Of a DNA stretch of 64,000 nt, positions 4,904 to 58,806 are shown piece after piece. The position numbers were made by a program, and so were the translations under genes. The stretch covers positions 1 to 64,000 of the forward strand of contig CALSPM010000005.1 in NCBI GenBank assembly GCA_943788235.1, read 5' to 3'. Below the pieces are notes generated by a model, which was not told where the DNA came from, ran no database searches, and saw nothing but the letters and a program-made list of their open reading frames with translations. Each line of letters opens with the position of its first letter. The first letter of the stretch is position 1. The DNA is from an uncultured Cyclobacteriaceae bacterium. GTDB taxonomy: Bacteria; Bacteroidota; Bacteroidia; Cytophagales; Cyclobacteriaceae.

Positions 4904-5878
4904 TCATAAATTTAATCGTTGCAACAGGTGTTGCTTTCTTCTTTTTTTCATTGTTTTTAGTTTAATTAAATGCCGTTGTTTTAAGATCTCAAGTCCGCGT
5001 CCAAAGTACACATCCGCCGGTGTTAGATTTTCAGTGATTCGTGATATCGTACGTTGTTGTAATACTCAACAAACTCTTCAAGTCTGTTTATTAAATCCCC
5101 AGGTAAATAATAATTTTCAAGTTTTACAATGTTTTTCATTGATCTGTGCCAACGTTCTATTTTTCCTTGCGTCTGCGGGTGCACAGGTCTTCCTCTAACA
5201 TGACTCATTCCCTTATCCTTAATGTACTCAGCAAGTTCTGAACTGATGTAGTAAGAACCATTATCACTGAGCAGTCTGGGGCTGTTGTTCTTATCTAGGC
5301 TAGCTTTTTCTAAAGCACTATCAATCGTTCTCCTGACCTCATCAGCATTCATATTAGAGCATAGCTCCCAGTGTACAATATAACGGCTGTAATCATCTAA
5401 AAAAGTAGATAGGTAATACCAACCCCATCCAATTATTTTAAAGTTTGTAAAATCAGTTTGCCACATTTGATGCACTCGGGTTGTTTTATCCTTGAACTAT
5501 CACAAGCTCTCATCACATATATGCTGGAGAAGTAATCAGTCCTCTTGATTTGAGTATCCGATATACACTACTTTCAGATATGAAGTAACCATTTTGATCA
5601 ATCATGCGGTAAGCAAGCTCTCTTGGAGACAGTTCGGGAACTTCCAAAGCAAGTTCAACCACTTCATTTCGAACTTGGTCAGGTATTCTATTCCACTGGC
5701 TGTTATTGGTACGTCTTTTAGGTGAAAGACCATCATAACCATGCTTAGTATACTTTCCATACCAGTTGTAAAACGTCCTTTTTGAAATGTCCAGCTCACC
5801 AAGTGTTCTGTTCACGCCAAGTTCTGAGTCTTCAACCAATCGGATGATCTCGTATTTTTCATCTTGAGTAAAGCGCAT
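4904..5878 (-). pseudogene. IS3-family transposase OrfB (integrase core), frameshifted
   Basis: Open frames at 5513-5878 and 5023-5475, plus a tail at 4904-5022, together make an OrfB. It has an N-terminal HTH (RFTQDEKYEIIRLVEDSE), then the DDE integrase core with WQTDFTNFK, LDDYSRYIVHWEL, LLSDNGSYY and the HPQTQGKIERWHRSMKN segment that carries the catalytic Glu. Indels lie near 5475-5513 and near 5023. The last frame continues as NLTPADVYFGRG to a TGA at 4904. No single intact product is possible. Confidence 0.8.
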
Positions 5879-5892
5879 ATACTTTCTGAACT

Positions 5893-6256
5893 TTATGCTA
5901 GACCACGCAAGCTTTTTTTGAGTACTCTGATTTCAAGAGCTTGCTCTGCAGCAACCAGTTTAAGGTTCTGCGATTCATCCTTGAGATCTTTAACTTCTCC
6001 GGGATTAACATCACGCTCTGTATCGTCATTTAAACGCTTTTTACCTGCTTCAATAAAGTCCTTGCTCCAACGATAGTAGAGCGCTGGTGCTATTCCCTTC
6101 TTTACGACAAATTTCTGAAATTGATTCTTCTCCTTTTAATCCTTCAAGAACGATTCTGATTTTTTCTTCAGAACCAAACTTTCTTCTGGTTTGTCTTCTG
6201 ATATCTCTTACAACTGCCTCAGCAGTTCTTTTTATTGGTCTTCCTACTTTTCCCAT
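5893..6256 (-). pseudogene. IS3-family transposase OrfA (HTH), frameshifted
   Basis: The start MGKVGRPIKRTAEAVV and the segment FGSEEKIRIVLEGLKGEES match the OrfA of the intact copy. After CRKEG an extra G shifts the frame. The expected continuation (LYYRWSKDFIEAGKKRL) is in another frame, running to a TAA at 5893. An A7 run near 5911-5918 sits where a -1 slip would join OrfA to OrfB, as in the intact relative. Confidence 0.7.
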
Positions 6257-14979: not shown

Positions 14980-15245
14980 CTAATTGTTCTGTCTTTTTAT
15001 TTGAATGCTAATGTGATCGTAATTCCCAGTAAAGAGTTTAAGTGTTGCATAGTTAAATAAACAAATACTAATCATTTCAAAGGTTTCTTCAAGGCTAGAT
15101 AATCCAAACAACCCGAATTGGGTGCATTTGGTTTCAAATATAGAATCACAGTTATTGGATATATGTTCTAAGCCAATAGCACCGGTTAAAAAAATCACTC
15201 CGGAGGCTCCCATATATACTTTTGTGTAAAAATCAAGACGCATTA
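14980..15245 (-). pseudogene. C-terminal fragment of a multi-spanning membrane protein
   Basis: The 87 residues contain two hydrophobic helices (VYMGASGVIFLTGAIGLEHI and SICLFNYATLKLF) and a central SLEETFEMI segment. This pattern (G-A-x-G-x-E, then a loop, then EE-x-x-E-M) recalls the end of a family of small integral membrane proteins. The upstream edge at 15245 abuts a partial insertion sequence, so the 5' part was lost in the rearrangement. Confidence 0.5.
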
Positions 15246-15797
15246 ACCATATTGGATGATTACAGTCGTTTTATTGTCAACTGGAAGTTATGTGCCACTA
15301 TGAAGGCAGAGGATGTAAAACAGACCTTGGATGAGGCTTTATTAGTCGCACAAACCCATGCTCCTCTAAAGTTACTATCTGATAATGGATCGTGTTACCT
15401 ATCTATTGAATTAGCAGAATATTTAAATGATCGAAACATGAAACATGTACGAGGTCGACCGCTTCATCCACAAACTCAGGGTAAAATTGAACGATATCAC
15501 AGATCAATGAAAAATGTAGTGAAACTGGATAATTATTACAGCCCAGGGCAGCTAGAGTCTAAAATGAAGCAATTTGTTCAGTATTACAACTATGAAAGAT
15601 ACCATGAGTCCATCAATAACCTTACTCCTTCTGAGGTCTATTATGGAACTGGAGAACGAAAACTTAGGCATAGGGAAAAAATCAAACAACAAACTTTAAT
15701 TGAACGAAAAAAGCAGAATTAAATTAATTATTTAAATTAGTATCAACACTCGCTTAATTTATATCTGAAAAAGTCCACTTTTATTTGACGACATACA
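15246..15797 (+). mobile_element. Partial IS3-family element (IS-B), right-hand 552 bp
   Basis: From the AACCATATTGG at 15246 to the terminal ACA at 15797 the sequence matches the 3' part of the intact element at 21341-22814, in the opposite orientation. It includes the last ~160 codons of OrfB (LDDYSRFIVNWKL, LLSDNGSCYLS, HPQTQGKIERYHRSM) and the terminal inverted repeat. One base change (C to T) creates an early TAA after KKQN. The left 60% of the element is missing. Confidence 0.85.
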
Positions 15798-15938
15798 CTT
15801 AGATTTTTTTAATCTAGAAACCATGAATTCTAACATTGAAACCCCATTTATGGCTTCCATGAGAACTTTTCCTGGCAAACGACTAGATGTCATTCTTGCT
15901 TCAATAGATGCTACTATTTTTCTCTTTTTCGTCACCAT
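15759..15938 (-). pseudogene. N-terminal fragment of an SpsF-like cytidylyltransferase, cut by IS-B
   Basis: ATG at 15938 begins MVTKKRKIVASIEARMTSSR, then LPGKVLMEAINGVSMLE: the CTP-binding start (x-x-x-x-ARMxSxRLPGK) of SpsF/NeuA-like nucleotidyltransferases. About 46 codons remain. At 15797 the frame enters the IS inverted repeat and stops at 15759. A second, nearly complete SpsF-like gene lies at 19718-20462. Confidence 0.7.
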
Positions 15939-21336: not shown

Positions 21337-21397
21337 TAATTGTATGTCGTCAAATAAAAGTGGACTTTTTCAGATATAAATTAAGCGAGTGTTGATA

Positions 21398-22366
21398 CTA
21401 ATTTAAATAATTAATTTGATTCTGCTTTTTTCGTTCAATTAAAGTTTGTTGTTTGATTTTTTCCCTATGCCTAAGTTTTCGTTCTCCAGTTCCATAATAG
21501 ACCTCAGAAGGAGTAAGGTTATTGATGGACTCATGGTATCTTTCATAGTTGTAATACTGAACAAATTGCTTCATTTTAGACTCTAGCTGCCCTGGGCTGT
21601 AATAATTATCCAGTTTCACTACATTTTTCATTGATCTGTGATATCGTTCAATTTTACCCTGAGTTTGTGGATGAAGCGGTCGACCTCGTACATGTTTCAT
21701 GTTTCGATCATTTAAATATTCTGCTAATTCAATAGATAGGTAACACGATCCATTATCAGATAGTAACTTTAGAGGAGCATGGGTTTGTGCGACTAATAAA
21801 GCCTCATCCAAGGTCTGTTTTACATCCTCTGCCTTCATAGTGGCACATAACTTCCAGTTGACAATAAAACGACTGTAATCATCCAATATGGTTGATAAGT
21901 AATACCATCCCCATCCAACTATTTTAAAATAGGTGAAGTCTGTTTGCCACATCTGATTTACTGAAGTGGTTTTATCTTGAAAACTATCAGAGGCACTCAT
22001 AATCCTGAATGAAGGAGTTGTGATAAGACCATTGAGCTTTAATATCCTATACACACTCGACTCACTGATATAATAACTGTATTTATCTATGATATGCCAT
22101 GCCAGCTCTCTAGATGATAACTCAGGGCGTTCTAAAGCAATCTCAACCACTTTATCTCTGTCAGCTAAGTTGATCTTATTCCAAACTTCTTTCCTATTAC
22201 CAGACCTTCGAGCCAATCCATCATATCCATGCTGTTGGTAGCCATTATACCATTTGTAAAAGGTAGTTTTATTCACTTTTAGTTGCCTAAGCGTCCTGAT
22301 AACACCAAGATCACTTTGCTCTACAAGACGGATGATCTCCATCTTTTCGTTTTGACTGTAATGCAT
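21398..22366 (-). CDS. IS3-family transposase OrfB
   Basis: A 322-residue DDE transposase. It has an N-terminal HTH (MHYSQNEKMEIIRLVEQSD, then YKWYNGYQQHGYDGLAR), an HTH_21-like linker (ERPELSSRELAWHIID) and the integrase core with WQTDFTYFK (first Asp), LLSDNGSCYLS (second Asp) and HPQTQGKIERYHRS (Glu). It can be made alone (AGAGGAAG precedes its ATG) or fused to OrfA: an A8 run in OrfA (22400-22407, T8 on the plus strand) precedes a -1 frame that is open through KKHWLTRVKRKKYMHYSQ into this gene. Confidence 0.92.
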   Translation of the reverse strand: MHYSQNEKMEIIRLVEQSDLGVIRTLRQLKVNKTTFYKWYNGYQQHGYDGLARRSGNRKEVWNKINLADRDKVVEIALERPELSSRELAWHIIDKYSYYISESSVYRILKLNGLITTPSFRIMSASDSFQDKTTSVNQMWQTDFTYFKIVGWGWYYLSTILDDYSRFIVNWKLCATMKAEDVKQTLDEALLVAQTHAPLKLLSDNGSCYLSIELAEYLNDRNMKHVRGRPLHPQTQGKIERYHRSMKNVVKLDNYYSPGQLESKMKQFVQYYNYERYHESINNLTPSEVYYGTGERKLRHREKIKQQTLIERKKQNQINYLN

Positions 22367-22380
22367 GTACTTCTTCCTCT

Positions 22381-22728
22381 TTACTCGGGTGAGCCAATGT
22401 TTTTTTTCAAGTCTCTCACTTCTAGTGAAAGATCTGCCACCAGTTCCTTTAAAGAGGCGTTCTCACCTTTTAATTCTTGAACCTCTGAGGTATTGGCTTC
22501 TCGCATGGTATCACCATTTAACCTGTGCTTGCCAGCTTCCATGAAATCCTTACTCCACTTGTAATAGTTTGCTTGATGAATGCCTTCCCTACGACAGAGT
22601 TCAGCAATACTCAACTCACCTCGAATACCCTCAATTACAATTCTGATCTTTTCTTCTGAATTATATGCCTTGCGTGTCTTCCTTTTTAGTTCACTAATTA
22701 ATGAACTTGCATTTCTCTTCTTTCCCAT
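22381..22728 (-). CDS. IS3-family transposase OrfA
   Basis: A 115-residue protein with a HTH_Tnp_1 domain (YNSEEKIRIVIEGIRGELSI, CRREGIHQANYYKWSKDF) and a C-terminal leucine-zipper-like coiled coil (VQELKGENASLKELVADLSL). It binds the IS ends and regulates transposition in this family. The A8 slippery run lies near its 3' end. Confidence 0.9.
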   Translation of the reverse strand: MGKKRNASSLISELKRKTRKAYNSEEKIRIVIEGIRGELSIAELCRREGIHQANYYKWSKDFMEAGKHRLNGDTMREANTSEVQELKGENASLKELVADLSLEVRDLKKNIGSPE

Positions 22729-43480: not shown

Positions 43481-44128
43481 GATGCCGACGAAGGCGGTGT
43501 TGGCAACAGTATAGATACATGCTCAGATACAGAAAAGGGAGTGACTGTAGATGAAGAAGGATGTTTACTTCCCCTTTATTCAGATGATCTCTTCTTGGAT
43601 ACAAATGGGGTTACCCTCAAAGCAAAAGAAAATACCATCTTGGGAGCCAATTATAGCTTTAATTCAGAGATTTGTAGGGTAGTAGATGATGCTCTTTTCA
43701 GAGCGCTAGTCGCTGATGACCAAGATCTTTCAAAGCTGGTAACCACCCGAGTCACTGATTTGAATAATTTATTTACTGCCACAACTGTGAATTTTGATAT
43801 CACTTCTTGGGATGTCAGTAAGGTCATCAATATGAAATGTCTGTTTTATCAAGCGAGCTCGTTTAACCAAGACCTCAGTTCCTGGGAAGTAAGTAAGGTA
43901 ACTGCCATGGCAGAAATGTTTTATGGAAGTGTCGCCTTTAATCATGACCTGAACGCCTGGAGGGTAAATGAAGTTACAGACATAACCCGAATGTTTTTTC
44001 TCTCCATGTCATTCAATCAAGATTTAACTATTTGGCAGGTAGACCAGATAACCAAATGCACGGATTTCAGTTTTAATGCTGCTGCATGGACGGCCTCTCA
44101 GCCCAACTCCACGAGCTGCATAAAGTAA
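43481..44128 (+). pseudogene. BspA-family (DUF285) surface protein fragment with thrombospondin-3 segment
   Basis: No proper start exists, since the only in-frame candidate is a GTG at 43541. From 43481 the frame reads DADEGGVGNSIDTC and GVTVDEEGC, a calcium-binding thrombospondin type-3 repeat. It is followed by DUF285/BspA repeats built on FNQDLSSWEVSKVTAMAEMF-type units, about four copies. The C-terminus ends TSCIK without a sorting domain. The 5' part was lost at the junction with the sterol desaturase gene. Confidence 0.75.
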
Positions 44129-44224: not shown

Positions 44225-44292
44225 GTGCCCTTTACTTTTCCATTCTCAAACTCTTTAAGCACAAGCTTAATTAATCTTAATAAACTTAAAAA
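44225..44292 (+). repeat. Truncated copy (a) of the direct repeat DR1
   Basis: About 68 bases beginning GTGCCCTTTACTTTTCCATT match the first part of the longer repeats at 46883 and 57114 (GTACCCTTTACGGTTCCATT, continuing through the AATTAATCTT core). After about AAACTTAAAAA the similarity ends. Confidence 0.75.
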
Positions 44293-46625: not shown

Positions 46626-46882
46626 AATTATTTACATGTTCATCTTTCACAATTCGCGATCCTCTTATCCATTTTTTCTGCTACTATTTTAGAATATTGA
46701 AAGAATTAAATATCTTTTCTCAGCCTATTAAAGCACTTTCCCAAAATTTATCCTTTCAGAATCAAGTATAAATTAATATATTGTTTTTCAAAATGATCAA
46801 CAAATCCACTGGCTTCTCGAAGTAACTAAATTAAGAAGAATTCACAAAAAAGAGAGATAACTCTTACTTTGTCTCCAGTATA
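46626..46882. other. Intergenic region upstream of the WbpP-like gene
   Basis: About 257 bases of AT-rich DNA with no gene. It presumably holds the promoter of the leftward wbpP/wbpO-like pair, but I cannot single out a box with confidence. Confidence 0.4.
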
Positions 46883-47342
46883 GTACCCTTTACGGTTCCA
46901 TTATCGAACTCCTTAACCGCAAGTTTAATTAATCTTTACGAACTAAAAAAAGTCCTACATCTAGCAGGTTTAACTAGTTATAACGGGATCCCCATCGATA
47001 ATCCTAATAATAATAATCCTTTTCAATTACCTCAAGGGGATTGAACTAGATAAACCAATGGTACTACTTAAATTGAGTTAAACTATAATAGTATTAAATA
47101 GTATGGCAAATACAACGGGAAAGAAATACGGAGGAAGAGAGAAGGGAACACCCAACAGATTGACTAAAGAGTTAAGATCTGTACTAAAAGGGATAGTATA
47201 TCAATAATTAGAAAAAATAGAAGAAAATTTAAACGAATTAGAACCAAAAGAAAGATTAGAACTTGTTCTTAAGTTAATGCCTTATACTCTACCTAAGGAA
47301 AATAGCATATCTCACACTACTAATGAGCCTTTGGATTGGGAG
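46883..47342 (+). repeat. Direct repeat DR1 copy (b), ~460 bp
   Basis: From GTACCCTTTACGGTTCCATT to the GATTGGGA near 47335-47342 this matches 57114-57571 with substitutions and few indels. The copies contain a conserved ~54-codon open stretch ending LPQGD, then a small basic-protein ORF. Both are in the plus orientation and lie 10,231 bp apart. Confidence 0.85.
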
Positions 47343-47351
47343 ATGCATTAA
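47103..47351 (+). pseudogene. Small basic accessory protein (DR1-borne), nonsense at codon 35
   Basis: Starts MANTTGKKYGGREKGTPNRL, then a helical body with LNELEPKERLELVLKLMPY. The first 34 residues end at a TAA (47205-47207) where the sister copy at 57333 has GAA, so this is a point nonsense. The frame otherwise stays open to 47351. It resembles small K-G-G-R-K-G-TPN proteins found near Bacteroidota mobile genes; function unknown. Confidence 0.65.
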
Positions 47352-47380
47352 TAAATTACTCAATAAAACGATGTACAATG

Positions 47381-48183: not shown

Positions 48184-51100
48184 TTGACTCCAAATACAGA
48201 TCATTTTAACCAATCTAAGTCTGTCAAGACTAACAAATTATTAAAAGAGGCTTCTGTTAATAATGAAAAAGCAGAAGCCTCATTTAATGACCAAAGAACT
48301 TCCGTAGCTCAAGTAAAAAGCCTACAAAACATCATACAAAATAGTTCTAGAGCGGCGCCGATACGGCAATTACAAGCAATCATTAATTCTGCGCCGACGT
48401 CACCTGTGAGACAATTATCTTCTCTTATGTCTCAGGATGGTCAAGAGACGGAGGTAGAAGAGCAGCGGGAAACGGTTGCTTCCCCTGCAGTGCAATTTGA
48501 TACTGGAGGAGATGACGCAGAAGTCAATCCTCCGCCCCCTTCAGGAACAAATAATACCAGCGACGGATTACCAAATGGTCTAAAATCAGGTGTGGAAAGT
48601 TTATCCGGTCATTCGATGGATGACGTGAAGGTGCATAGTAGCTCATCAGAGCCAGCACAATTGAATGCGCATGCCTTTGCGCAAGGTTCCGACATTCATT
48701 TAGCACCGGGACAAGAAAAATATTTACCCCATGAAGCTTGGCACGTAGCCCAACAAAAACAAGGTAAAGTCGAGCCTACGACACAATTAAAGGGAAAGAT
48801 CCCTGTCAATGACGATGAGCGTTTGGAGAATGAAGCAGACGTTATGGGTGCAAAAGCAGTATCTGTAGGTGCCCAAAGTATCAATTCTCAATCAGATGTA
48901 GGTTTTAGTAGGGAAAAAGAGGAAGAAAATATTCAATTTAAGTTAACGTCAAATGAGGTTACACAAAAAGCAGAAGTTACAGAAGAAAATAAATTTTTAA
49001 TTAATGATGGTGTAAAATCTTTTAACCTATTTGGACAGGAAGTAATTGTAACTGTGTCTGGTGGACAAGCAAAATTAAAACTCAACTTAACTAATCCTAT
49101 TACTGGTGAAGACAACATAACCGCAAGCGGCACAATAGTTAACCCTTCTGTGGACGAAGCTGGCTTCAAATTTGTTAGCGCACACTTAGCAACCTCAGAT
49201 ATAGTCTTACCAGGTGGTTTGAAATTTACAGCCCTTGAAGTTAATGCGACCCCCGAAACCTATGATGGCAAAGGAACATTTGCTGCGGCAGGTGACAAAA
49301 TAAAGAGTGCAAAAGGAGACGTTGGGATCACAAATGATGGTAACAAGACTAATTATACTCTATCAAATGGTGAGTTGGGTATCGAACTCTTCGGGCAAAC
49401 AATTGAAGTTAAAGGTGTCACTTACAAGGATGGGAAAATTGAAGCGGATGCAGCAAAATTAAAACTCAACTTAACTAATCCTATTACTGGTGAAGACAAC
49501 ATAACCGCAAGCGGCACAATAGTTAACCCTTCTGTGGACGAAGCTGGCTTCAAATTTGTTAGCGCACACTTAGCAACCTCAGATATAGTCTTACCAGGTG
49601 GTTTGAAATTTACAGCCCTTGAAGTTAATGCGACCCCCGAAACCTATGATGGCAAAGGAACATTTGCTGCGGCAGGTGACAAAATAAAGAGTGCAAAAGG
49701 AGACGTTGGGATCACAAATGATGGTAACAAGACTAATTATACTCTATCAAATGGTGAGTTGGGTATCGAACTCTTCGGGCAAACAATTGAAGTTAAAGGT
49801 GTCACTTACAAGGATGGGAAAATTGAAGCGGATGCAGCAAAATTAAAACTCAACTTAACTAATCCTATTACTGGTGAAGACAACATAACCGCAAGCGGCA
49901 CAATAGTTAACCCTTCTGTGGACGAAGCTGGCTTCAAATTTGTTAGCGCACACTTAGCAACCTCAGATATAGTCTTACCAGGTGGTTTGAAATTTACAGC
50001 CCTTGAAGTTAATGCGACCCCCGAAACCTATGATGGCAAAGGAACATTTGCTGCGGCAGGTGACAAAATAAAGAGTGCAAAAGGAGACGTTGGGATCACA
50101 AATGATGGTAACAAGACTAATTATACTCTATCAAATGGTGAGTTGGGTATCGAACTCTTCGGGCAAACAATTGAAGTTAAAGGTGTCACTTACAAGGATG
50201 GGAAAATTGAAGCGGATGCAGCAAAATTAAAACTCAACTTAACTAATCCTATTACTGGTGAAGACAACATAACCGCAAGCGGCACAATAGTTAACCCTTC
50301 TGTGGACGAAGCTGGCTTCAAATTTGTTAGCGCACACTTAGCAACCTCAGATATAGTCTTACCAGGTGGTTTGAAATTTACAGCCCTTGAAGTTAATGCG
50401 ACCCCCGAAACCTATGATGGCAAAGGAACATTTGCTGCGGCAGGTGACAAAATAAAGAGTGCAAAAGGAGACGTTGGGATCACAAATGATGGTAACAAGA
50501 CTAATTATACTCTATCAAATGGTGAGTTGGGTATCGAACTCTTCGGGCAAACAATTGAAGTTAAAGGTGTCACTTACAAGGATGGGAAAATTGAAGCGGA
50601 TGCAGCAAAATTAAAACTCAACTTAACTAATCCTATTACTGGTGAAGACAACATAACCGCAAGCGGCACAATAGTTAACCCTTCTGTGGACGAAGCTGGC
50701 TTCAAATTTGTTAGCGCACACTTAGCAACCTCAGATATAGTCTTACCAGGTGGTTTGAAATTTACAGCCCTTGAAGTTAATGCGACCCCCGAAACCTATG
50801 ATGGCAAAGGAACATTTGCTGCGGCAGGTGACAAAATAAAGAGTGCAAAAGGAGACGTTGGGATCACAAATGATGGTAACAAGACTAATTATACTCTATC
50901 AAATGGTGAGTTGGGTATCGAACTCTTCGGGCAAACAATTGAAGTTAAAGGTGTCACTTACAAGGATGGGAAAATTGAAGCGGATGCAGCAAAATTAAAA
51001 CTCAACTTAACTAATCCTATTACTGGTGAAGACAACATAACCGCAAGCGGCACAATAGTTAACCCTTCTGTGGACGAAGCTGGCTTCAAATTTGTTAGCG

Positions 51101-54100
51101 CACACTTAGCAACCTCAGATATAGTCTTACCAGGTGGTTTGAAATTTACAGCCCTTGAAGTTAATGCGACCCCCGAAACCTATGATGGCAAAGGAACATT
51201 TGCTGCGGCAGGTGACAAAATAAAGAGTGCAAAAGGAGACGTTGGGATCACAAATGATGGTAACAAGACTAATTATACTCTATCAAATGGTGAGTTGGGT
51301 ATCGAACTCTTCGGGCAAACAATTGAAGTTAAAGGTGTCACTTACAAGGATGGGAAAATTGAAGCGGATGCAGCAAAATTAAAACTCAACTTAACTAATC
51401 CTATTACTGGTGAAGACAACATAACCGCAAGCGGCACAATAGTTAACCCTTCTGTGGACGAAGCTGGCTTCAAATTTGTTAGCGCACACTTAGCAACCTC
51501 AGATATAGTCTTACCAGGTGGTTTGAAATTTACAGCCCTTGAAGTTAATGCGACCCCCGAAACCTATGATGGCAAAGGAACATTTGCTGCGGCAGGTGAC
51601 AAAATAAAGAGTGCAAAAGGAGACGTTGGGATCACAAATGATGGTAACAAGACTAATTATACTCTATCAAATGGTGAGTTGGGTATCGAACTCTTCGGGC
51701 AAACAATTGAAGTTAAAGGTGTCACTTACAAGGATGGGAAAATTGAAGCGGATGCAGCAAAATTAAAACTCAACTTAACTAATCCTATTACTGGTGAAGA
51801 CAACATAACCGCAAGCGGCACAATAGTTAACCCTTCTGTGGACGAAGCTGGCTTCAAATTTGTTAGCGCACACTTAGCAACCTCAGATATAGTCTTACCA
51901 GGTGGTTTGAAATTTACAGCCCTTGAAGTTAATGCGACCCCCGAAACCTATGATGGCAAAGGAACATTTGCTGCGGCAGGTGACAAAATAAAGAGTGCAA
52001 AAGGAGACGTTGGGATCACAAATGATGGTAACAAGACTAATTATACTCTATCAAATGGTGAGTTGGGTATCGAACTCTTCGGGCAAACAATTGAAGTTAA
52101 AGGTGTCACTTACAAGGATGGGAAAATTGAAGCGGATGCAGCAAAATTAAAACTCAACTTAACTAATCCTATTACTGGTGAAGACAACATAACCGCAAGC
52201 GGCACAATAGTTAACCCTTCTGTGGACGAAGCTGGCTTCAAATTTGTTAGCGCACACTTAGCAACCTCAGATATAGTCTTACCAGGTGGTTTGAAATTTA
52301 CAGCCCTTGAAGTTAATGCGACCCCCGAAACCTATGATGGCAAAGGAACATTTGCTGCGGCAGGTGACAAAATAAAGAGTGCAAAAGGAGACGTTGGGAT
52401 CACAAATGATGGTAACAAGACTAATTATACTCTATCAAATGGTGAGTTGGGTATCGAACTCTTCGGGCAAACAATTGAAGTTAAAGGTGTCACTTACAAG
52501 GATGGGAAAATTGAAGCGGATGCAGCAAAATTAAAACTCAACTTAACTAATCCTATTACTGGTGAAGACAACATAACCGCAAGCGGCACAATAGTTAACC
52601 CTTCTGTGGACGAAGCTGGCTTCAAATTTGTTAGCGCACACTTAGCAACCTCAGATATAGTCTTACCAGGTGGTTTGAAATTTACAGCCCTTGAAGTTAA
52701 TGCGACCCCCGAAACCTATGATGGCAAAGGAACATTTGCTGCGGCAGGTGACAAAATAAAGAGTGCAAAAGGAGACGTTGGGATCACAAATGATGGTAAC
52801 AAGACTAATTATACTCTATCAAATGGTGAGTTGGGTATCGAACTCTTCGGGCAAACAATTGAAGTTAAAGGTGTCACTTACAAGGATGGGAAAATTGAAG
52901 CGGATGCAGCAAAATTAAAACTCAACTTAACTAATCCTATTACTGGTGAAGACAACATAACCGCAAGCGGCACAATAGTTAACCCTTCTGTGGACGAAGC
53001 TGGCTTCAAATTTGTTAGCGCACACTTAGCAACCTCAGATATAGTCTTACCAGGTGGTTTGAAATTTACAGCCCTTGAAGTTAATGCGACCCCCGAAACC
53101 TATGATGGCAAAGGAACATTTGCTGCGGCAGGTGACAAAATAAAGAGTGCAAAAGGAGACGTTGGGATCACAAATGATGGTAACAAGACTAATTATACTC
53201 TATCAAATGGTGAGTTGGGTATCGAACTCTTCGGGCAAACAATTGAAGTTAAAGGTGTCACTTACAAGGATGGGAAAATTGAAGCGGATGCAGCAAAATT
53301 AAAACTCAACTTAACTAATCCTATTACTGGTGAAGACAACATAACCGCAAGCGGCACAATAGTTAACCCTTCTGTGGACGAAGCTGGCTTCAAATTTGTT
53401 AGCGCACACTTAGCAACCTCAGATATAGTCTTACCAGGTGGTTTGAAATTTACAGCCCTTGAAGTTAATGCGACCCCCGAAACCTATGATGGCAAAGGAA
53501 CATTTGCTGCGGCAGGTGACAAAATAAAGAGTGCAAAAGGAGACGTTGGGATCACAAATGATGGTAACAAGACTAATTATACTCTATCAAATGGTGAGTT
53601 GGGTATCGAACTCTTCGGGCAAACAATTGAAGTTAAAGGTGTCACTTACAAGGATGGGAAAATTGAAGCGGATGCAGCAAAATTAAAACTCAACTTAACT
53701 AATCCTATTACTGGTGAAGACAACATAACCGCAAGCGGCACAATAGTTAACCCTTCTGTGGACGAAGCTGGCTTCAAATTTGTTAGCGCACACTTAGCAA
53801 CCTCAGATATAGTCTTACCAGGTGGTTTGAAATTTACAGCCCTTGAAGTTAATGCGACCCCCGAAACCTATGATGGCAAAGGAACATTTGCTGCGGCAGG
53901 TGACAAAATAAAGAGTGCAAAAGGAGACGTTGGGATCACAAATGATGGTAACAAGACTAATTATACTCTATCAAATGGTGAGTTGGGTATCGAACTCTTC
54001 GGGCAAACAATTGAAGTTAAAGGTGTCACGTTTGATAGTAAATCTTTGATTGTAGGAGATGCCAATGTTCAAATTTCAGTTCCGATTCCGGGAATGGAGT

Positions 54101-55308
54101 CGCTACCAAAAGTATCAGTTCAGGGGTTAAAAATAGACAAAAACAATAATTGGGATTTCGAGAGTATCAGCATTAAAAAGGGTATAGATTTAGATTTCCT
54201 TGGATTTCTTAAGGTAGGAGTACAAGAAATGACAGTTAAAAAGGATGCCCAAGGCATGCAATTATCGGCAATGGGGGGAATTAGTGGCAATTTGAACGTT
54301 TTTGGAAAAGAAATAGGTTCATTTGGCGGTTCAGGGACTTTAATGCATGATTTCGAAACAGAAAAAACTAATAAAACATTAGAGGGAGTATCCGCAACTT
54401 TACCTAAGACATCATTTCCCAAAGATCTTATTGGAATCGATGGGATTGGAGGAAATGCGACTATTCCTGTTTTCCCGGGCGTGAGTATAGTAGCAGGAGC
54501 ATCATTAAGTGGAGGAGTAAATATTCCTCCGTTACAATTAAATTTTTCACAGCTCTCCGAAGATAACTATAAAATTTCATTTGGAACTATTGAAACCCCA
54601 GCCGCAGGTTTCATACAAGCAAGTCTTTTTGTCGGAGCACAATTAGGTTACTCTGCGCTTTTATCTTCAGATGTTACTCTCAATGCAGACGGGAAAATTG
54701 CCGCTTTGTTGGCATTCGATGCATCAAAAGAAATATCGATGGGAGAAAAGGCGACAAAACTTGAATTAGGGAATGATGAATCAATGAGGTTTAACTATGA
54801 ATTATCTGGAGAGGCTAAATTGGCAGCTATTTTAAAAATTAGGGCCAAGGTACTTTATTTCTTCACAAAAGAATATAATAAAACACTGGCAGAGAAGAGT
54901 TTGGGGAAATTCAAATATTTAAACGGGAATATAGAATGGGAAAAAAATACAGAACCTTTAGAAAACATAGAGATAGAAAAATCTATTGGAAATGAGATGG
55001 GGGATTCAAGGGCTCTTGAAAATGAAGTCCCCACTAAAGAGGAGTTCATAGAAAAATCTACAACCTATGGTTACTTCGGTGGTGAAAATGAAAGGAAAAC
55101 TATTAGCCCTGTTGACGAAGCTCTAGGGGAATATGATTTAATTAGAGGAGAGGATAAGTCCGCTGAGAAAAAAGAGGCCGCTCTAATTAGTTTGTCAAGT
55201 AAAATTAAGACATATTTAGAAGCAGATAAAGGGAGCAGACTTGAAGTAACTAAACGTTTACTTGCAGAAATTAATAACGCCATCTCTCTACTAAAAAAAA
55301 TGAAATAG
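48184..55308 (+). CDS. Giant DUF4157 (eCIS-core-like) protein with 13 identical 128-residue repeats
   Basis: A 2374-residue protein, start TTG at 48184 as no in-frame ATG fits better. Residues 1-100 carry RQLQAI-type segments usual in this family. Residues ~130-225 are a DUF4157 domain: LSGHSMDDVKVH, HEAWHVAQQ with HEAWH at 183-187 (zinc-metallopeptidase-like HExxH), and ERLENEADVMG with the likely third ligand. Residues ~296-1949 are 13 tandem 128-residue units (the last incomplete), beta-strand rich, with 12 Lys and no Arg, Cys, Met or Trp per unit. A unique C-terminus (~1950-2374) is beta-rich, then charged and helical, ending AINNAISLLKKMK. No signal peptide or sorting domain is seen. Family knowledge: DUF4157 domains are common on cargo linked to contractile injection systems. 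No such machinery is in this window. Confidence 0.85.
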   Translation: MTPNTDHFNQSKSVKTNKLLKEASVNNEKAEASFNDQRTSVAQVKSLQNIIQNSSRAAPIRQLQAIINSAPTSPVRQLSSLMSQDGQETEVEEQRETVASPAVQFDTGGDDAEVNPPPPSGTNNTSDGLPNGLKSGVESLSGHSMDDVKVHSSSSEPAQLNAHAFAQGSDIHLAPGQEKYLPHEAWHVAQQKQGKVEPTTQLKGKIPVNDDERLENEADVMGAKAVSVGAQSINSQSDVGFSREKEEENIQFKLTSNEVTQKAEVTEENKFLINDGVKSFNLFGQEVIVTVSGGQAKLKLNLTNPITGEDNITASGTIVNPSVDEAGFKFVSAHLATSDIVLPGGLKFTALEVNATPETYDGKGTFAAAGDKIKSAKGDVGITNDGNKTNYTLSNGELGIELFGQTIEVKGVTYKDGKIEADAAKLKLNLTNPITGEDNITASGTIVNPSVDEAGFKFVSAHLATSDIVLPGGLKFTALEVNATPETYDGKGTFAAAGDKIKSAKGDVGITNDGNKTNYTLSNGELGIELFGQTIEVKGVTYKDGKIEADAAKLKLNLTNPITGEDNITASGTIVNPSVDEAGFKFVSAHLATSDIVLPGGLKFTALEVNATPETYDGKGTFAAAGDKIKSAKGDVGITNDGNKTNYTLSNGELGIELFGQTIEVKGVTYKDGKIEADAAKLKLNLTNPITGEDNITASGTIVNPSVDEAGFKFVSAHLATSDIVLPGGLKFTALEVNATPETYDGKGTFAAAGDKIKSAKGDVGITNDGNKTNYTLSNGELGIELFGQTIEVKGVTYKDGKIEADAAKLKLNLTNPITGEDNITASGTIVNPSVDEAGFKFVSAHLATSDIVLPGGLKFTALEVNATPETYDGKGTFAAAGDKIKSAKGDVGITNDGNKTNYTLSNGELGIELFGQTIEVKGVTYKDGKIEADAAKLKLNLTNPITGEDNITASGTIVNPSVDEAGFKFVSAHLATSDIVLPGGLKFTALEVNATPETYDGKGTFAAAGDKIKSAKGDVGITNDGNKTNYTLSNGELGIELFGQTIEVKGVTYKDGKIEADAAKLKLNLTNPITGEDNITASGTIVNPSVDEAGFKFVSAHLATSDIVLPGGLKFTALEVNATPETYDGKGTFAAAGDKIKSAKGDVGITNDGNKTNYTLSNGELGIELFGQTIEVKGVTYKDGKIEADAAKLKLNLTNPITGEDNITASGTIVNPSVDEAGFKFVSAHLATSDIVLPGGLKFTALEVNATPETYDGKGTFAAAGDKIKSAKGDVGITNDGNKTNYTLSNGELGIELFGQTIEVKGVTYKDGKIEADAAKLKLNLTNPITGEDNITASGTIVNPSVDEAGFKFVSAHLATSDIVLPGGLKFTALEVNATPETYDGKGTFAAAGDKIKSAKGDVGITNDGNKTNYTLSNGELGIELFGQTIEVKGVTYKDGKIEADAAKLKLNLTNPITGEDNITASGTIVNPSVDEAGFKFVSAHLATSDIVLPGGLKFTALEVNATPETYDGKGTFAAAGDKIKSAKGDVGITNDGNKTNYTLSNGELGIELFGQTIEVKGVTYKDGKIEADAAKLKLNLTNPITGEDNITASGTIVNPSVDEAGFKFVSAHLATSDIVLPGGLKFTALEVNATPETYDGKGTFAAAGDKIKSAKGDVGITNDGNKTNYTLSNGELGIELFGQTIEVKGVTYKDGKIEADAAKLKLNLTNPITGEDNITASGTIVNPSVDEAGFKFVSAHLATSDIVLPGGLKFTALEVNATPETYDGKGTFAAAGDKIKSAKGDVGITNDGNKTNYTLSNGELGIELFGQTIEVKGVTYKDGKIEADAAKLKLNLTNPITGEDNITASGTIVNPSVDEAGFKFVSAHLATSDIVLPGGLKFTALEVNATPETYDGKGTFAAAGDKIKSAKGDVGITNDGNKTNYTLSNGELGIELFGQTIEVKGVTFDSKSLIVGDANVQISVPIPGMESLPKVSVQGLKIDKNNNWDFESISIKKGIDLDFLGFLKVGVQEMTVKKDAQGMQLSAMGGISGNLNVFGKEIGSFGGSGTLMHDFETEKTNKTLEGVSATLPKTSFPKDLIGIDGIGGNATIPVFPGVSIVAGASLSGGVNIPPLQLNFSQLSEDNYKISFGTIETPAAGFIQASLFVGAQLGYSALLSSDVTLNADGKIAALLAFDASKEISMGEKATKLELGNDESMRFNYELSGEAKLAAILKIRAKVLYFFTKEYNKTLAEKSLGKFKYLNGNIEWEKNTEPLENIEIEKSIGNEMGDSRALENEVPTKEEFIEKSTTYGYFGGENERKTISPVDEALGEYDLIRGEDKSAEKKEAALISLSSKIKTYLEADKGSRLEVTKRLLAEINNAISLLKKMK
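49069..54030 (+). repeat. Tandem array of 13 x 384-bp identical coding units
   Basis: Units start with GCAAAATTAAAACTCAAC at 49069, 49453, 49837 and every 384 bp to 53677. Twelve are complete and the thirteenth ends at about 54030, where GTCACTTACAAG is replaced by GTCACGTTTGAT. I found no base differences between units on reading through them, implying recent expansion or active homogenisation. Confidence 0.92.
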
Positions 55309-55474: not shown

Positions 55475-57067
55475 ATGATGGGAAAAAGGAATATTCCTGA
55501 TAATTTGGATGATATATCTGATGTAAAGGAGAGCTATAATGCATTGCCATATTCAAGTTATTCTTATTCGAAATCTAATCCAATGCATTTGAGTACGATT
55601 GCAAAATTAGTTGGTATGGAGCCCCCACCATTAAAAAATGCCAAAGTACTTGAATTGGGATGTGCCTCGGGAGGGAACATTATCCCTTTTGCAATGCAAT
55701 ATCCCGAGTCTAATATTATAGGTGTTGACTTATCGGATGTTCAAATAAATAAAGGTATTGATTTTACAAAGCATTTGAATATCCCCAATGTGGATTTATT
55801 GGCCTGTTCGATCGGTGATATAGATGAGTCATTTGGAAAATTTGATTACATTATCGCACATGGACTTTATTCTTGGGTGAATGAGCCATTAAAACAAAAA
55901 ATCTTATCTATATGTAATCATAATCTCAATGAGAATGGCATTGCCTATGTGAGCTATAATACGCTACCGGGCTGGAATAACTTGATGACAATTAGAGATA
56001 TGGCACTTTATCACAGTCAAAACTTTAAGGCTATCGATGAAAAGATCGATCAAACTAAATCTCTTTTGTCGTTTATAAGTGATGCCATTAAAGACAATGA
56101 TAGCTTTTACTCAAAACTCATCATGCAGTCAGTGAATTTATTGACTAACAAACCAAATGATTACATAGCACATGAATTTTTAGAATCCGAGAATACCCCA
56201 TGCTATTTTTCAGAATTCATAGAAAAAGTTAAGGCAAATAATTTGAGATATGTTTCAGATACTAATATAGCTTCTATGTTCCTTGATAATTATTCTGAAA
56301 AAATAAGTGCTAAATTGAAAGAAATTAACGAGGTAGAGCGTATAGAGCAGTACTTAGATTTTATTGTTAATAGGACTTTTAGATCTTCTATATTATGTCA
56401 CAAAAGCCAAAAATTAGACCGATCTCTTGATATTAAATTGGCTCCCCACTTTAGGTATAAAATGGATATCACTAAAAATGAAAATAAAGACGCAAACGAT
56501 CAAACATCATTTACTTTTTTAAATAATCCTGATGAAACAATTGCTTCAGACAACCCCATAATGATCTCTTTATTAAGCCAATTAGCAAAAAAATATACAT
56601 TCGTTTTATTCGATGATTTATTAAATATTTTGGCAGCTGACTATGATACTTTAAGTAGAGGAGAAATTAAAATACAAATAAGCCAAGCCCTAATAGGCTT
56701 TATTTTGAAAGGAAAAATTCATATTAGATATGAAGAGGATGGCTTTAATAGTCCCGAAATTAATAAGCCGAAGGCATGGGAATATGCAGTCCAACAATGT
56801 ATTGATTTAAACCAGAATATTGTTACTAACATATTTTTCGAAACGGTACAGTTAACCCTCTTTGAATTTTATTTGATTCGGTATATAAACGGAGAGAATA
56901 CCAGAGAGGATATTTTGAAAAGTATGGTCAAACATTTCAAAAATGGCGACTTAGAAACAAAGTATGGGGGGAAAAAAGTAACCTCAGAAGAAAAATTATT
57001 GAGCATAATTTCCTTGACTTATATAGATGCCATTGAAAGATTGGAAAGACAAGCGTTGTTGGTGTAG
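55475..57067 (+). CDS. SAM-dependent methyltransferase with regulatory domain (PKMT-like)
   Basis: A 530-residue protein. A class I SAM domain occupies residues ~35-200 (VLELGCASGGNIIPFA at 58-73; IIGVDLSD at 81-88; AHGLYSWV; AYVSYNTLPGW). The methyltransferase-regulatory segment follows (~220-300; FLESENTPCYFSEFIEK, NNLRYVSDTNIASMF), then a long C-terminal helical region (QISQALIGFILKGKIHI). This architecture matches the rickettsial enzymes that methylate lysines of outer-membrane proteins, and related proteins widespread in Gram-negatives. It lies 166 bp after the giant repeat gene on the same strand, inside the direct-repeat bracket, so that Lys-rich protein is an attractive substrate. This is inference. 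Confidence 0.85.
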   Translation: MMGKRNIPDNLDDISDVKESYNALPYSSYSYSKSNPMHLSTIAKLVGMEPPPLKNAKVLELGCASGGNIIPFAMQYPESNIIGVDLSDVQINKGIDFTKHLNIPNVDLLACSIGDIDESFGKFDYIIAHGLYSWVNEPLKQKILSICNHNLNENGIAYVSYNTLPGWNNLMTIRDMALYHSQNFKAIDEKIDQTKSLLSFISDAIKDNDSFYSKLIMQSVNLLTNKPNDYIAHEFLESENTPCYFSEFIEKVKANNLRYVSDTNIASMFLDNYSEKISAKLKEINEVERIEQYLDFIVNRTFRSSILCHKSQKLDRSLDIKLAPHFRYKMDITKNENKDANDQTSFTFLNNPDETIASDNPIMISLLSQLAKKYTFVLFDDLLNILAADYDTLSRGEIKIQISQALIGFILKGKIHIRYEEDGFNSPEINKPKAWEYAVQQCIDLNQNIVTNIFFETVQLTLFEFYLIRYINGENTREDILKSMVKHFKNGDLETKYGGKKVTSEEKLLSIISLTYIDAIERLERQALLV

Positions 57068-57113
57068 TCAAATCTTTTTAGATGTCCTTAAAAATCATTC
57101 AATATTAATGTTA

Positions 57114-57571
57114 GTACCCTTTACGGTTCCATTCTCGAACTCTTTAATTGCAAGTTTAATTAATCTTTACAAACTAAAAAAGGTTCTACATCTGGGAGGT
57201 TTAACTGATTACAACGGTATCCCCACTCATAATCTCAATAATAAGAATACTTTTCAATTACCTCAAGGGGATTGAACTAGATAAACCAATGGTAATACTT
57301 AATTAAGTTAAACTATAATAGTATCAAATAGTATGGCAAATACAACAGGAAAGAAATACGGAGGTAGAGAAAAGGGAACACCCAACAGATTGACTAAAGA
57401 ATTAAGATCTATACTAAAAGATATAGTATATCAGGAATTAGAAGACATAAAAAAGATTAGACAAATTAGAACCAAAGGAAACAACAGAATTTGTTATTAA
57501 TCTAATGTCTTACCCTCTGTCTAAAGCAAATAGCATATCTCACATGACCAATGAGGCTTTTGATTGGGGAT
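57114..57571 (+). repeat. Direct repeat DR1 copy (c), ~458 bp
   Basis: Matches copy (b) at 46883-47342 in the same orientation, from GTACCCTTTACGGTTCCATT through the small-protein ORF to GATTGGGG. In both copies a ~54-codon frame (NSLIASLINLYKLKKVLHL in this copy) ending FQLPQGD stays open without indels, whereas the small ORF is broken differently in each. Confidence 0.85.
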
Positions 57572-57696
57572 TGACTAAAATTGCTCAAAGAAAGATATTA
57601 CCAGAAACAGCTAATGTAAGAGACGCCATTGTTAAATCCTATGATCAGCCTATCAGATGTAAGGATATTTCTTACTATTTGAAGAAGTTATTTTAG
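57333..57696 (+). pseudogene. Small basic accessory protein (DR1-borne), frameshifted
   Basis: Starts MANTTGKKYGGREKGTPNRL like the copy at 47103 and has GAA where that copy has a stop. A shift near 57450-57465 moves it out of frame. The continuation (PKETTEFVINLMSYPLSKAN) runs on into a tail absent from the other copy (LTKIAQRKILPETANVRDAI, ISYYLKKLF), ending at 57696. The tail may belong to a different gene joined here. Confidence 0.6.
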
Positions 57697-57776: not shown

Positions 57777-58544
57777 TTGAAAATAAATAACTCTCATAAT
57801 TATATGGATAATTGGATACTTCCTGAAAATTTAAAAAAAAGTGAATTGGAGCATAGAACAAGCAATTCTATAATCGATGTTAAAAACGATTTTAGTAGCT
57901 ATAGAAAATTATTAGAAGAGAATGATGTCAGTAAAAGTATGATTAAATCTCACAATGACATTAATCCAAAAAATAAACTGAGCCTTTTAAAAAAAATTAC
58001 TGACCGTTTTTTAAAAATTAAAAATACTAAATCTATTCTTAATGTTGGATGTGGTGTCGGCTTTGAAACTAAAGCATTATCCGAAATTTACAATTGTGAG
58101 ATTACTGGAATAGAGGCATCCTCTGATGGGATTGCTTATGCTGAAAAATATAATTCAAGTACTAAAACTAAATTTATTAATCAAGTAATTGATAGTGATT
58201 TTTTACTGGGAATAAAATTTGATATTTGCTTTGCAATCGAATTCTATCCCTTCACAAGAACTAAAGATTTAGATTTTCAAAAAAATATCATTTCGGCTAT
58301 TTTTAAAAATCTAAACAAAGGAGGTTCTCTTATTATTTCCCATTTAGATGATGATATTAATTCAATTAATTCTAATGTCAAAGAATTATCATCTTTGTTA
58401 AATAAAAATAGCACAGTTATCCATAATTACCATCCTAAAATATTTAGACTTGTTCCTAGCTTAATTTTAACACGATTAATATGTTTGATTGTCAGTAAAC
58501 TGTTCAATAAAACTTTTGGCAAAAAAATAATAATTTTTAATTAA
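57777..58544 (+). CDS. Class I SAM-dependent methyltransferase
   Basis: A 255-residue protein with SILNVGCGVGFETKALSEI (motif I), ITGIEASSDGIAYAEKY (acidic end of strand 2), FDICFAIEFYPF (motif II-like) and LNKGGSLIISHLDDD. These define a Methyltransf_11/25-like domain. The start is TTG at 57777 or more likely the ATG at 57804 (MDNWILPEN). Substrate unknown. The low G+C and Lys/Asn-rich composition resemble the AT-rich glycan cassette rather than the neighbouring housekeeping genes, suggesting acquisition. Confidence 0.75.
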   Translation: MKINNSHNYMDNWILPENLKKSELEHRTSNSIIDVKNDFSSYRKLLEENDVSKSMIKSHNDINPKNKLSLLKKITDRFLKIKNTKSILNVGCGVGFETKALSEIYNCEITGIEASSDGIAYAEKYNSSTKTKFINQVIDSDFLLGIKFDICFAIEFYPFTRTKDLDFQKNIISAIFKNLNKGGSLIISHLDDDINSINSNVKELSSLLNKNSTVIHNYHPKIFRLVPSLILTRLICLIVSKLFNKTFGKKIIIFN

Positions 58545-58585
58545 ACTTTGCAAATATAGTCCTCAGATGACTCAAGCTGTAAATG

Positions 58586-58669
58586 TACCCGGGATGGGAC
58601 TTGAACCCATACGATCTTGCGATCACAGGATTTTAAGTCCTGCGTGTCTACCAATTCCACCACCCGGGC
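58586..58669 (-). tRNA. tRNA-Leu (UAA)
   Basis: An 84-nt class II tRNA read on the minus strand. Acceptor GCCCGGG pairs with CCCGGGT (first pair G-U). Anticodon stem CAGGA/TCCTG with loop CTTAAAA gives anticodon UAA. There is a long variable arm and the T-loop GTTCAAGTC. The 3' CCA is not encoded. Confidence 0.95.
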
Positions 58670-58704
58670 AGGTATATTAAGTTGAAGCATACACTTCAAT
58701 AACA

Positions 58705-58728
58705 AAAAGCCGCTGATAGCGGCTCTTT
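58705..58728 (-). terminator. Rho-independent terminator between the two tRNA genes
   Basis: Stem AGCCGCT/AGCGGCT with a 3-base loop, flanked by A-rich and T-rich runs, lies between tRNA-Gly (upstream on the minus strand) and tRNA-Leu. Confidence 0.7.
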
Positions 58729-58733
58729 TATTG

Positions 58734-58806
58734 AGCGGGAGACGAGATTCGAACTCGCGACCCCAACCTTGGCAAGGTTGTGCTCTACCAGCTGAGCTAC
58801 TCTCGC
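58734..58806 (-). tRNA. tRNA-Gly (GCC)
   Basis: A 73-nt tRNA on the minus strand. D-arm AGCTCAGCTGGTAGAGC, anticodon stem CAACC/GGTTG with loop TTGCCAA (anticodon GCC), T-arm GCGAGTTCGAATCTCGT. The acceptor strands GCGAGAG and CTCCCGC leave an A4-C69 mismatch where most relatives would have a G-C pair. CCA is not encoded. Confidence 0.92.

What the first reader, a model, noticed from the sequence alone, without database searches (positions are those of the whole stretch)
48184..55308. Giant DUF4157 protein built on 13 essentially identical 128-residue repeats
The sequence shows a HEAWH-containing DUF4157 domain followed by 13 tandem 384-bp units with no differences I can see, then a unique C-terminus. 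DUF4157 domains are known from cargo-type proteins of extracellular contractile injection systems, but carrying a ~1650-residue identical beta-rich array is not an architecture I know. Complete DNA identity implies very recent expansion or strong homogenisation, so copy number probably varies between strains and may tune length or reach of a surface or secreted fibre.
Basis: partly seen in the sequence, partly recalled or inferred. Interest (0 to 1): 0.85.

Follow-up and report, generated by a model that had tools for sequence, protein, structure and literature searches.

The report
Giant repeat cargo with methyltransferase partner
A bacterium carries a very large protein, probably the load of a phage-tail-like syringe, built on about thirteen DNA-identical repeats and paired with an enzyme of the kind that methylates lysines on giant bacterial surface proteins, which suggests that the load is chemically modified before use.

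Summary
ORF 48184-55308 (2374 aa) has a DUF4157/eCIS_core domain with HEAWH, then a 4962-bp array of 12.92 copies of a 384-bp unit without a single difference. The surface-fibre reading is not supported: no hydrophobic N-terminal stretch or sorting domain was seen. The evidence points to cargo of an extracellular contractile injection system (eCIS). The genome holds an eCIS locus on another contig. In a related genus (G050) a repeat-bearing homologue lies 180 bp from a gene run collinear with that locus (sheath 83% identical).

The repeat is a family trait: relatives carry 1 to 10 diverged units, so one unit was recently amplified here. The least expected part lies outside the finding. The next gene (55475-57067) is a near-full-length homologue of Rickettsia protein lysine methyltransferase 1 (E 3e-113). 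Among 390 family genomes (window genome included) close homologues occur in 3, each with the repeat protein; 3 of 4 genes lie directly downstream of it, and the fourth starts at a contig end. I infer that the enzyme methylates lysines of the repeat (12 lysines, no arginine per unit). Methylation, loading and target are untested, and copy number needs long reads.

The parts
48184..55308 (+). Giant DUF4157 repeat protein, 2374 aa, 249 kDa, predicted pI 4.8, no cysteine
48184..48567 (+). N-terminal region before the domain (aa 1-128); in the best cases homologous to the N-termini of other DUF4157 proteins of the genus from about aa 32
48568..48765 (+). DUF4157/eCIS_core domain (aa 129-194), HEAWH at 48730-48744
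   Evidence: Pfam PF13699 E 9.9e-10
49068..54029 (+). Perfect tandem array, 12.92 copies of a 384-bp (128-aa) unit, zero differences; 153 lysines and no arginine over aa 295-1925
53968..54309 (+). 14th, diverged repeat unit (aa 1929-2042); its first part overlaps the end of the exact array
   Evidence: repeat HMM E 1e-21
54310..55305 (+). C-terminal region (aa 2043-2374), conserved with G004 and, more weakly and in part, with other genera of the family
55475..57067 (+). Protein lysine methyltransferase of the rickettsial outer-membrane PKMT type, 530 aa, directly downstream (gap 166 bp)
   Evidence: PDB 5dnk E 3.3e-113, residues 19-530; Pfam MethyTransf_Reg and PKMT_2nd
46881..47363 (+). Left copy of a 483-bp direct repeat that brackets the gene pair
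   Evidence: 86% identical to 57112-57588; the genome search found only these two copies plus a 68-bp piece
57112..57588 (+). Right copy of the bracketing direct repeat, 44 bp after the methyltransferase gene

Best explanation
The protein is a cargo of the eCIS encoded elsewhere in this genome. Its N-terminus and DUF4157 domain mark it for loading into the tube, by analogy with Cgo1 and Cgo2 of Algoriphagus. Its body is a family-specific beta repeat of about 128 residues, of which one unit was recently amplified to about 13 identical copies, probably by unequal recombination. The downstream gene encodes a rickettsial-type protein lysine methyltransferase that is dedicated to this cargo and methylates many of its lysines before loading. 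The repeat array is thus a length-variable, multi-lysine substrate; methylation most likely protects it (from aggregation or packing problems in the tube, or from ubiquitination and proteolysis in a target cell). Shown: domain, array, eCIS in the genome, linkage of homologues to eCIS loci in two other genera, conserved pairing with the methyltransferase. Inferred: loading, methylation, protection, target.
For: DUF4157/eCIS_core with HExxH. eCIS locus in the same genome: sheath, three gp19 tube proteins, CIS_tube, spike OB domain and a weak baseplate J match; the sheath matches PDB 9r9h (E 7e-159) and 7adz (E 1e-102; recalled to be AlgoCIS). In G050 the repeat-protein gene lies 180 bp from the first of a gene run collinear with this genome's eCIS locus, 7.6 kb from a sheath gene 83% identical to its sheath; in G209 it lies 12 kb after the last such counterpart and 36 kb from the sheath. 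CIS_tube in 6 of 7 genomes with the repeat protein. Published: DUF4157 proteins Cgo1/Cgo2 fill the AlgoCIS tube; after contraction Cgo1 was missing and Cgo2 reduced (passages of PMC8894135). Pairing: PKMT homologue in 3 of 390 family genomes, window genome included, each among the 6 of 390 with repeat plus C-terminus; chance about 2e-6 if genomes were independent. Of the 4 genes, 3 lie directly downstream of a repeat-protein gene on the same strand, with gaps of 166, 21 and 3 bp, across two genera. Enzymes of this kind methylate many lysines of giant bacterial proteins: OmpB, and over 130 lysines of AtaA (abstract and sections 6 and 8 of PMC11784438).
Against: The gene is not beside the eCIS locus in this genome (contig C5 versus C1). 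CIS_tube is common in the genus (6 of 10), so mere presence of an eCIS is weak evidence; it was not found in G379. The repeat proteins of G050, G209 and G191 have no PKMT homologue in the stretches read, and the 390-genome search lists none for those genomes or G379, so methylation cannot be required by the whole family. The OM PKMT substrates that I read of are surface proteins. Lysine content (9.1%) is ordinary among the 13 DUF4157 or repeat proteins compared (8.0-12.2%). The 166-bp gap in the window leaves co-transcription open. The three genomes are related, so the 2e-6 overstates independence. The fourth PKMT gene (G288 C128) starts at a contig end and cannot be judged. One eCIS gene of this genome appears as several ORFs where G050 has one, so the system may be decaying or the assembly may hold indels.
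Confidence: 0.55

Rival explanations
1. It is eCIS cargo, but the methyltransferase is not its modifier: it is a second effector loaded in trans with the DUF4157 protein as adaptor, and methylates lysines in the target cell.
For: Effectors often lie beside DUF4157 genes (21% of known effectors against 3% of other genes, passages of PMC11297309). The pairing is conserved.
Against: The enzyme is a homologue, over nearly its whole length, of methyltransferases reported to act on the producer's own outer-membrane proteins (PMC11784438). The order, repeat gene first and enzyme directly after, is the same in the 3 readable cases.
Confidence: 0.15
2. It is a surface or secreted fibre or adhesin, methylated like OmpB or AtaA, and the array sets its reach.
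For: Known substrates of this enzyme class are surface fibres and outer-membrane proteins (PMC11784438). Repeat number varies between species.
Against: No hydrophobic N-terminal stretch; no type IX, autotransporter or anchor domain in Pfam; an eCIS_core domain, and homologues near eCIS loci in two other genera.
Confidence: 0.1
3. The array is real in kind but wrong in number: assembly or polishing turned a shorter or slightly varied array into 13 identical copies.
For: Zero differences over 4962 bp; an eCIS gene of the same genome (C1:359907-363371) appears in several frames, as indels in an assembly could give. In more fragmented relatives such genes are cut by contig ends: L029, L032, L034, L054.
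Against: The reading frame is open through all copies; flanking sequence is diverged and sharply bounded; a relative (L032, G288) has nine full and one partial, clearly different units in a row, so long arrays exist.
Confidence: 0.15

Closest known systems
Cgo1 and Cgo2, DUF4157 cargo of AlgoCIS (Algoriphagus machipongonensis; PMC8894135, passages read)
   Same: N-terminal region, central DUF4157, then a variable C-terminal part; the sheath of this genome's eCIS is related to 7adz, recalled to be that of AlgoCIS
   Different: About 1650 residues of identical repeats; gene away from the eCIS locus; lysine methyltransferase partner. The search terms I used found no such pairing or array in the held library
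eCIS-associated toxins with long linkers between DUF4157 and the C-terminal domain (PMC8213781, passages read)
   Same: That paper notes linkers that are occasionally over 1000 aa
   Different: Here the stretch is an exact tandem array, and Pfam and PHROGs name no domain in the C-terminal region
Rickettsial PKMT1/PKMT2 with OmpB, and KmtA with AtaA of Acinetobacter sp. Tol 5 (PMC11784438, abstract and sections 6 and 8 read)
   Same: Homologue of PKMT1 over residues 19-530 of 530; the partner is a giant protein with many lysines
   Different: The partner here carries an eCIS cargo domain, and no autotransporter or trimeric adhesin anchor was found; methylation not shown

Membership tests
eCIS DUF4157 cargo/effector | DUF4157/eCIS_core domain with HExxH | tested here: met
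   Pfam E 9.9e-10; HEAWH aa 183-187
eCIS DUF4157 cargo/effector | eCIS structural genes in the same genome | tested here: met
   Phage_sheath_1, Phage_GPD and Baseplate_J matches are under Pfam's cut-offs, the others over them
eCIS DUF4157 cargo/effector | Gene within about ten genes of the eCIS operon (88% of known effectors, PMC11297309) | tested here: not met
   Window on C5, eCIS on C1; the homologue in G050 is adjacent, that in G209 is 12 kb off
eCIS DUF4157 cargo/effector | Located in the tube lumen and released on contraction | not testable with these tools
   needs particles
OM PKMT, rickettsial type (gene 55475-57067) | Similarity to RpPKMT1 through the C-terminal domains | tested here: met
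   Residues 19-530 to 37-554 of 5dnk, E 3.3e-113; PKMT_2nd E 1.9e-16
OM PKMT, rickettsial type (gene 55475-57067) | AdoMet-binding Asp102 and His146 of RpPKMT1 | tested here: met
   D85 and H129, mapped by counting along the alignment (the chain there reads one number higher than the paper); same in 4 of 4 genes, window included
OM PKMT, rickettsial type (gene 55475-57067) | Leu103 and Ile130, important for OmpB recognition | tested here: inconclusive
   Both kept in the window (L86, I113); Ile in 4 of 4, Leu in 2 of 4 genes (F and I in the others)
OM PKMT, rickettsial type (gene 55475-57067) | Methylates lysines of its partner protein | not testable with these tools
   needs mass spectrometry
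Surface adhesin (Sec/type IX, autotransporter or trimeric adhesin) | Signal peptide and an anchoring or sorting domain | tested here: not met
   Hydropathy of the first 60 residues (not a trained predictor); no such Pfam domain

The most novel reading that the evidence does not exclude
A dedicated lysine methyltransferase modifies an injected cargo before it is loaded: the array is an expandable, arginine-free, multi-lysine substrate whose methylation shields the cargo in the target cell (as OmpB methylation is reported to block ubiquitination of Rickettsia), and the pair moves or is lost as a cassette between its bracketing direct repeats.
Probability: 0.3. Interest if true: 0.85.

Novelty: new variant of a known kind. 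Interest (0 to 1): 0.62.

Why it matters
DUF4157 proteins are the marker cargo of eCISs, yet what most of them do is unknown: 983 of 1130 predicted DUF4157 effectors had no other annotated domain (PMC11297309, passages). Here one subfamily gains a defined repeat, a conserved C-terminus and an enzyme partner with a testable chemistry. If the enzyme methylates the cargo, it would be the first link known to me between OM PKMTs and injection-system loads, and would answer in part what these enzymes do in genomes without trimeric adhesins, a question that PMC11784438 leaves open (section 8).

Tried and rejected
Pfam hits to Archease, DUF4688, DUF5666 and Ams1 on the full protein, an NCBIfam hit to a mutase and WD40 hits of the repeat profile in the PDB have no single stretch that passes on its own; I take them as weak matches summed over repeats and rejected them.

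Fold of the repeat: two AlphaFold2 runs, whose rows came from only two genomes (the window's and L050), gave mean pLDDT 53.5 and 54.4 and pTM 0.32 and 0.38. The strand pattern of the repeat agrees between the two, but the fold is not determined. The second model was not searched.

Viral origin: two scans of viral contigs found no relative; PHROGs none for the N-terminal or the last-repeat-plus-C-terminal part. Named relatives: one scan of genome contigs gave a single locus, L050, titled Flammeovirgaceae bacterium isolate bin.302; it is the reverse complement of the whole G004 contig.

An arginine-free array as proof of selection for methylation: rejected, since it is one unit of 12 lysines copied, and lysine is well over arginine in all 13 proteins compared.

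Wider pairing: 10 more distant PKMT homologues in 8 other genomes of the phylum had no DUF4157 or repeat protein in the flanks fetched (0 of 10; five of the ten stretches, L077, L078, L080, L081 and L086, reach a contig end).

Full report
Observation. The ORF at 48184-55308 is open for 2374 codons from a TTG. Homology to other DUF4157 proteins of the genus begins, in the best cases, at about residue 32, which fits this start. The array is exact: 49068-54029 is perfectly periodic at 384 bp over 4962 bases, 12.92 units, and the blocks on either side fall to about 28% identity. Tandem Repeats Finder agrees. A unit has 61 fourfold-degenerate sites, so the copies are recent or actively homogenised, or the assembly has made them alike; I had no reads.

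The domain. Pfam finds eCIS_core (DUF4157) at aa 129-194, E 9.9e-10, with HEAWH at aa 183-187. The genome (3.25 Mb, 14 contigs, 98.5% complete) has two such matches: this protein and an 823-aa ORF around C5:670.7 kb. A genus mate, G004, holds the contig titled Flammeovirgaceae bacterium isolate bin.302, a family of the Cytophagales; the window genome itself is unnamed.

The repeat family. An iterated profile started from one window unit finds 14 units in the window protein: 13 in or overlapping the exact array, and a diverged 14th. It finds nine full and one partial diverged units in L032 (G288, cut at a contig end), 3 each in L029 (G379), L030 (G209) and L034 (G004, cut, the first partial), 2 in L031 (G050), 1 in L033 (G191), and 4 in a second G288 protein, L054. 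DUF4157 is present in L030, L031 and L032 and in the ORF next to L033. L054 starts inside the domain: Pfam gives no match, a profile built here gives E 8e-25. L029 and L034 are cut before the place where it would lie. The repeat plus C-terminus is rare: 7 of 390 family genomes with a single sequence, 6 of 390 with a five-row profile, window genome included in both, and none of the 394 other genomes in a phylum sample of 395. These searches score only a few candidates per genome. No Pfam family matches a unit convincingly (best E 0.01, one of 22 units), no PDB chain matches with a passing stretch, and no PHROG family matches.

The injection system. A search for the sheath family finds one place, on contig C1, under the family's cut-off (20.7 of 31.4 bits). 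The same protein matches Phage_sheath_1C (E 3e-10), and the locus holds three gp19 tube proteins, CIS_tube, a protein with Phage_base_V, and a weak Baseplate_J match under its cut-off. The sheath matches PDB 9r9h (E 7e-159), 7adz (E 1e-102, recalled to be AlgoCIS) and All3325 (7b5h, E 2e-97). The window gene is on C5, not beside it; so is the other DUF4157 gene. In G050, however, the repeat-protein gene (C4:15788-19426, minus strand) lies 180 bp from the first of a gene run on the plus strand (from 19607) that is collinear with the window genome's eCIS locus, with a sheath 83% identical 7.6 kb away. In G209 the gene lies 12 kb after the last eCIS-locus counterpart and 36 kb from the sheath. 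CIS_tube is found in 6 of 7 genomes with the repeat protein; G379 is the miss. Since 6 of 10 genomes of the window's genus have CIS_tube, presence alone says little; the G050 adjacency says more. In Algoriphagus, two DUF4157 proteins were shown to fill the tube, and after contraction one was missing and the other reduced (PMC8894135, passages).

The partner enzyme. The next gene, 55475-57067, aligns over residues 19-530 with rickettsial protein lysine methyltransferase 1 (5dnk, E 3.3e-113) and over 18-519 with PKMT2 (5doo, E 1.6e-95). The AdoMet-binding Asp and His named in PMC11784438 are kept in 4 of 4 genes. In the genus, strong homologues occur in 2 of 10 genomes, the same two that have the repeat plus C-terminus; a third has only a weak partial match (E 6e-5 over 102 residues), and 4 of the 10 genomes are less than 90% complete. 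In the family sample they occur in 3 of 390 genomes, with four genes (E <= 1e-30). Three of the four lie directly downstream of a repeat-protein gene on the same strand: the window (166 bp), G004 (21 bp) and G288 contig C97 (3 bp). The fourth (G288 C128) begins at a contig end, so its upstream neighbour cannot be read. If genomes were independent, all three falling among the six repeat genomes would have a chance of about 2e-6; they are not independent, so I lean more on the conserved order across two genera. Against this: the repeat proteins of G050, G209 and G191 have no such enzyme in the stretches read, and one search lists none for those genomes or G379; ten more distant homologues elsewhere in the phylum have no DUF4157 in the flanks fetched.

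What such enzymes do. KmtA methylates over 130 lysines of the 3630-aa adhesin AtaA. PKMT1 and PKMT2 methylate OmpB, which, as that paper reports, prevents ubiquitination and autophagy of Rickettsia. The same paper notes species with OM PKMTs but no trimeric adhesin, where other proteins may be the substrates (PMC11784438: abstract, sections 6 and 8). The window protein is a candidate for such a substrate: each unit has 12 lysines and no arginine, 153 lysines over aa 295-1925. Lysine content is not unusual among the 13 proteins compared, so this is permissive rather than proof.

Mechanism. The cargo is made alongside its enzyme, methylated on repeat lysines, loaded through its N-terminus and DUF4157, and released on contraction. 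Amplification of one unit lengthens the cargo and multiplies the sites at once. All of this beyond the anatomy is inference.

The cassette. A 483-bp direct repeat brackets the gene pair, at 46881-47363 and 57112-57588, 86% identical. The genome search finds only these two copies apart from a 68-bp piece at 44225. Two tRNA genes lie at 58585-58806. Recombination between the direct repeats would remove the pair, which could help to explain why few genomes have it; this is untested.

Print. Searches for DUF4157 with methyltransferase, DUF4157 with tandem repeat, contractile injection system with lysine methyltransferase, lysine methylation with contractile injection and effector, and PKMT with Bacteroidetes, lysine methyltransferase and Rickettsia each returned no paper in the held library. 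That library lacks most subscription journals and holds no bioRxiv preprints.

Verdict. A real and unusual array (copy number pending reads) in a probable eCIS cargo protein, which is a known kind; the new part is the conserved pairing with a rickettsial-type lysine methyltransferase and the degree of repeat amplification.

Noticed in passing
window 46881-47363 and 57112-57588: 483-bp direct repeats, 86% identical, bracket the repeat-protein/methyltransferase pair; the genome search found no other copy except a 68-bp piece at 44225. Each holds a small broken ORF.
   Followed up: partly
L007, G000 C1:359907-363371: The counterpart of a 1142-aa ORF in the G050 eCIS locus (L091) appears as several shorter ORFs in the window genome: a broken gene or sequencing indels.
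   Followed up: no
L007:8362-11598 (G000 C1:363361-366594); L091; L030: A STAND NTPase with WD40 repeats lies after the eCIS genes here; homologues follow the eCIS genes in G050 and lie beside the repeat-protein gene in G209.
   Followed up: no
window 15242-15801 and 21337-21896: 560-bp inverted repeat, 99.5% identical.
   Followed up: no
window 5036-6173 and 21528-22660: About 1.1-kb stretches 65% identical on the same strand.
   Followed up: no
L007:14320-16260: One ORF joins a sulfate permease, a STAS domain and a C-terminal CHU_C type IX signal domain, an odd combination for a transporter.
   Followed up: no
window 43541-44128: Protein with a DUF285 domain, described by Pfam as a Mycoplasma family (E 6e-31).
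   Followed up: no
window 57777-58544 and 58585-58806: A second, generic methyltransferase and two tRNA genes (Leu, Gly) lie just after the right direct repeat.
   Followed up: no
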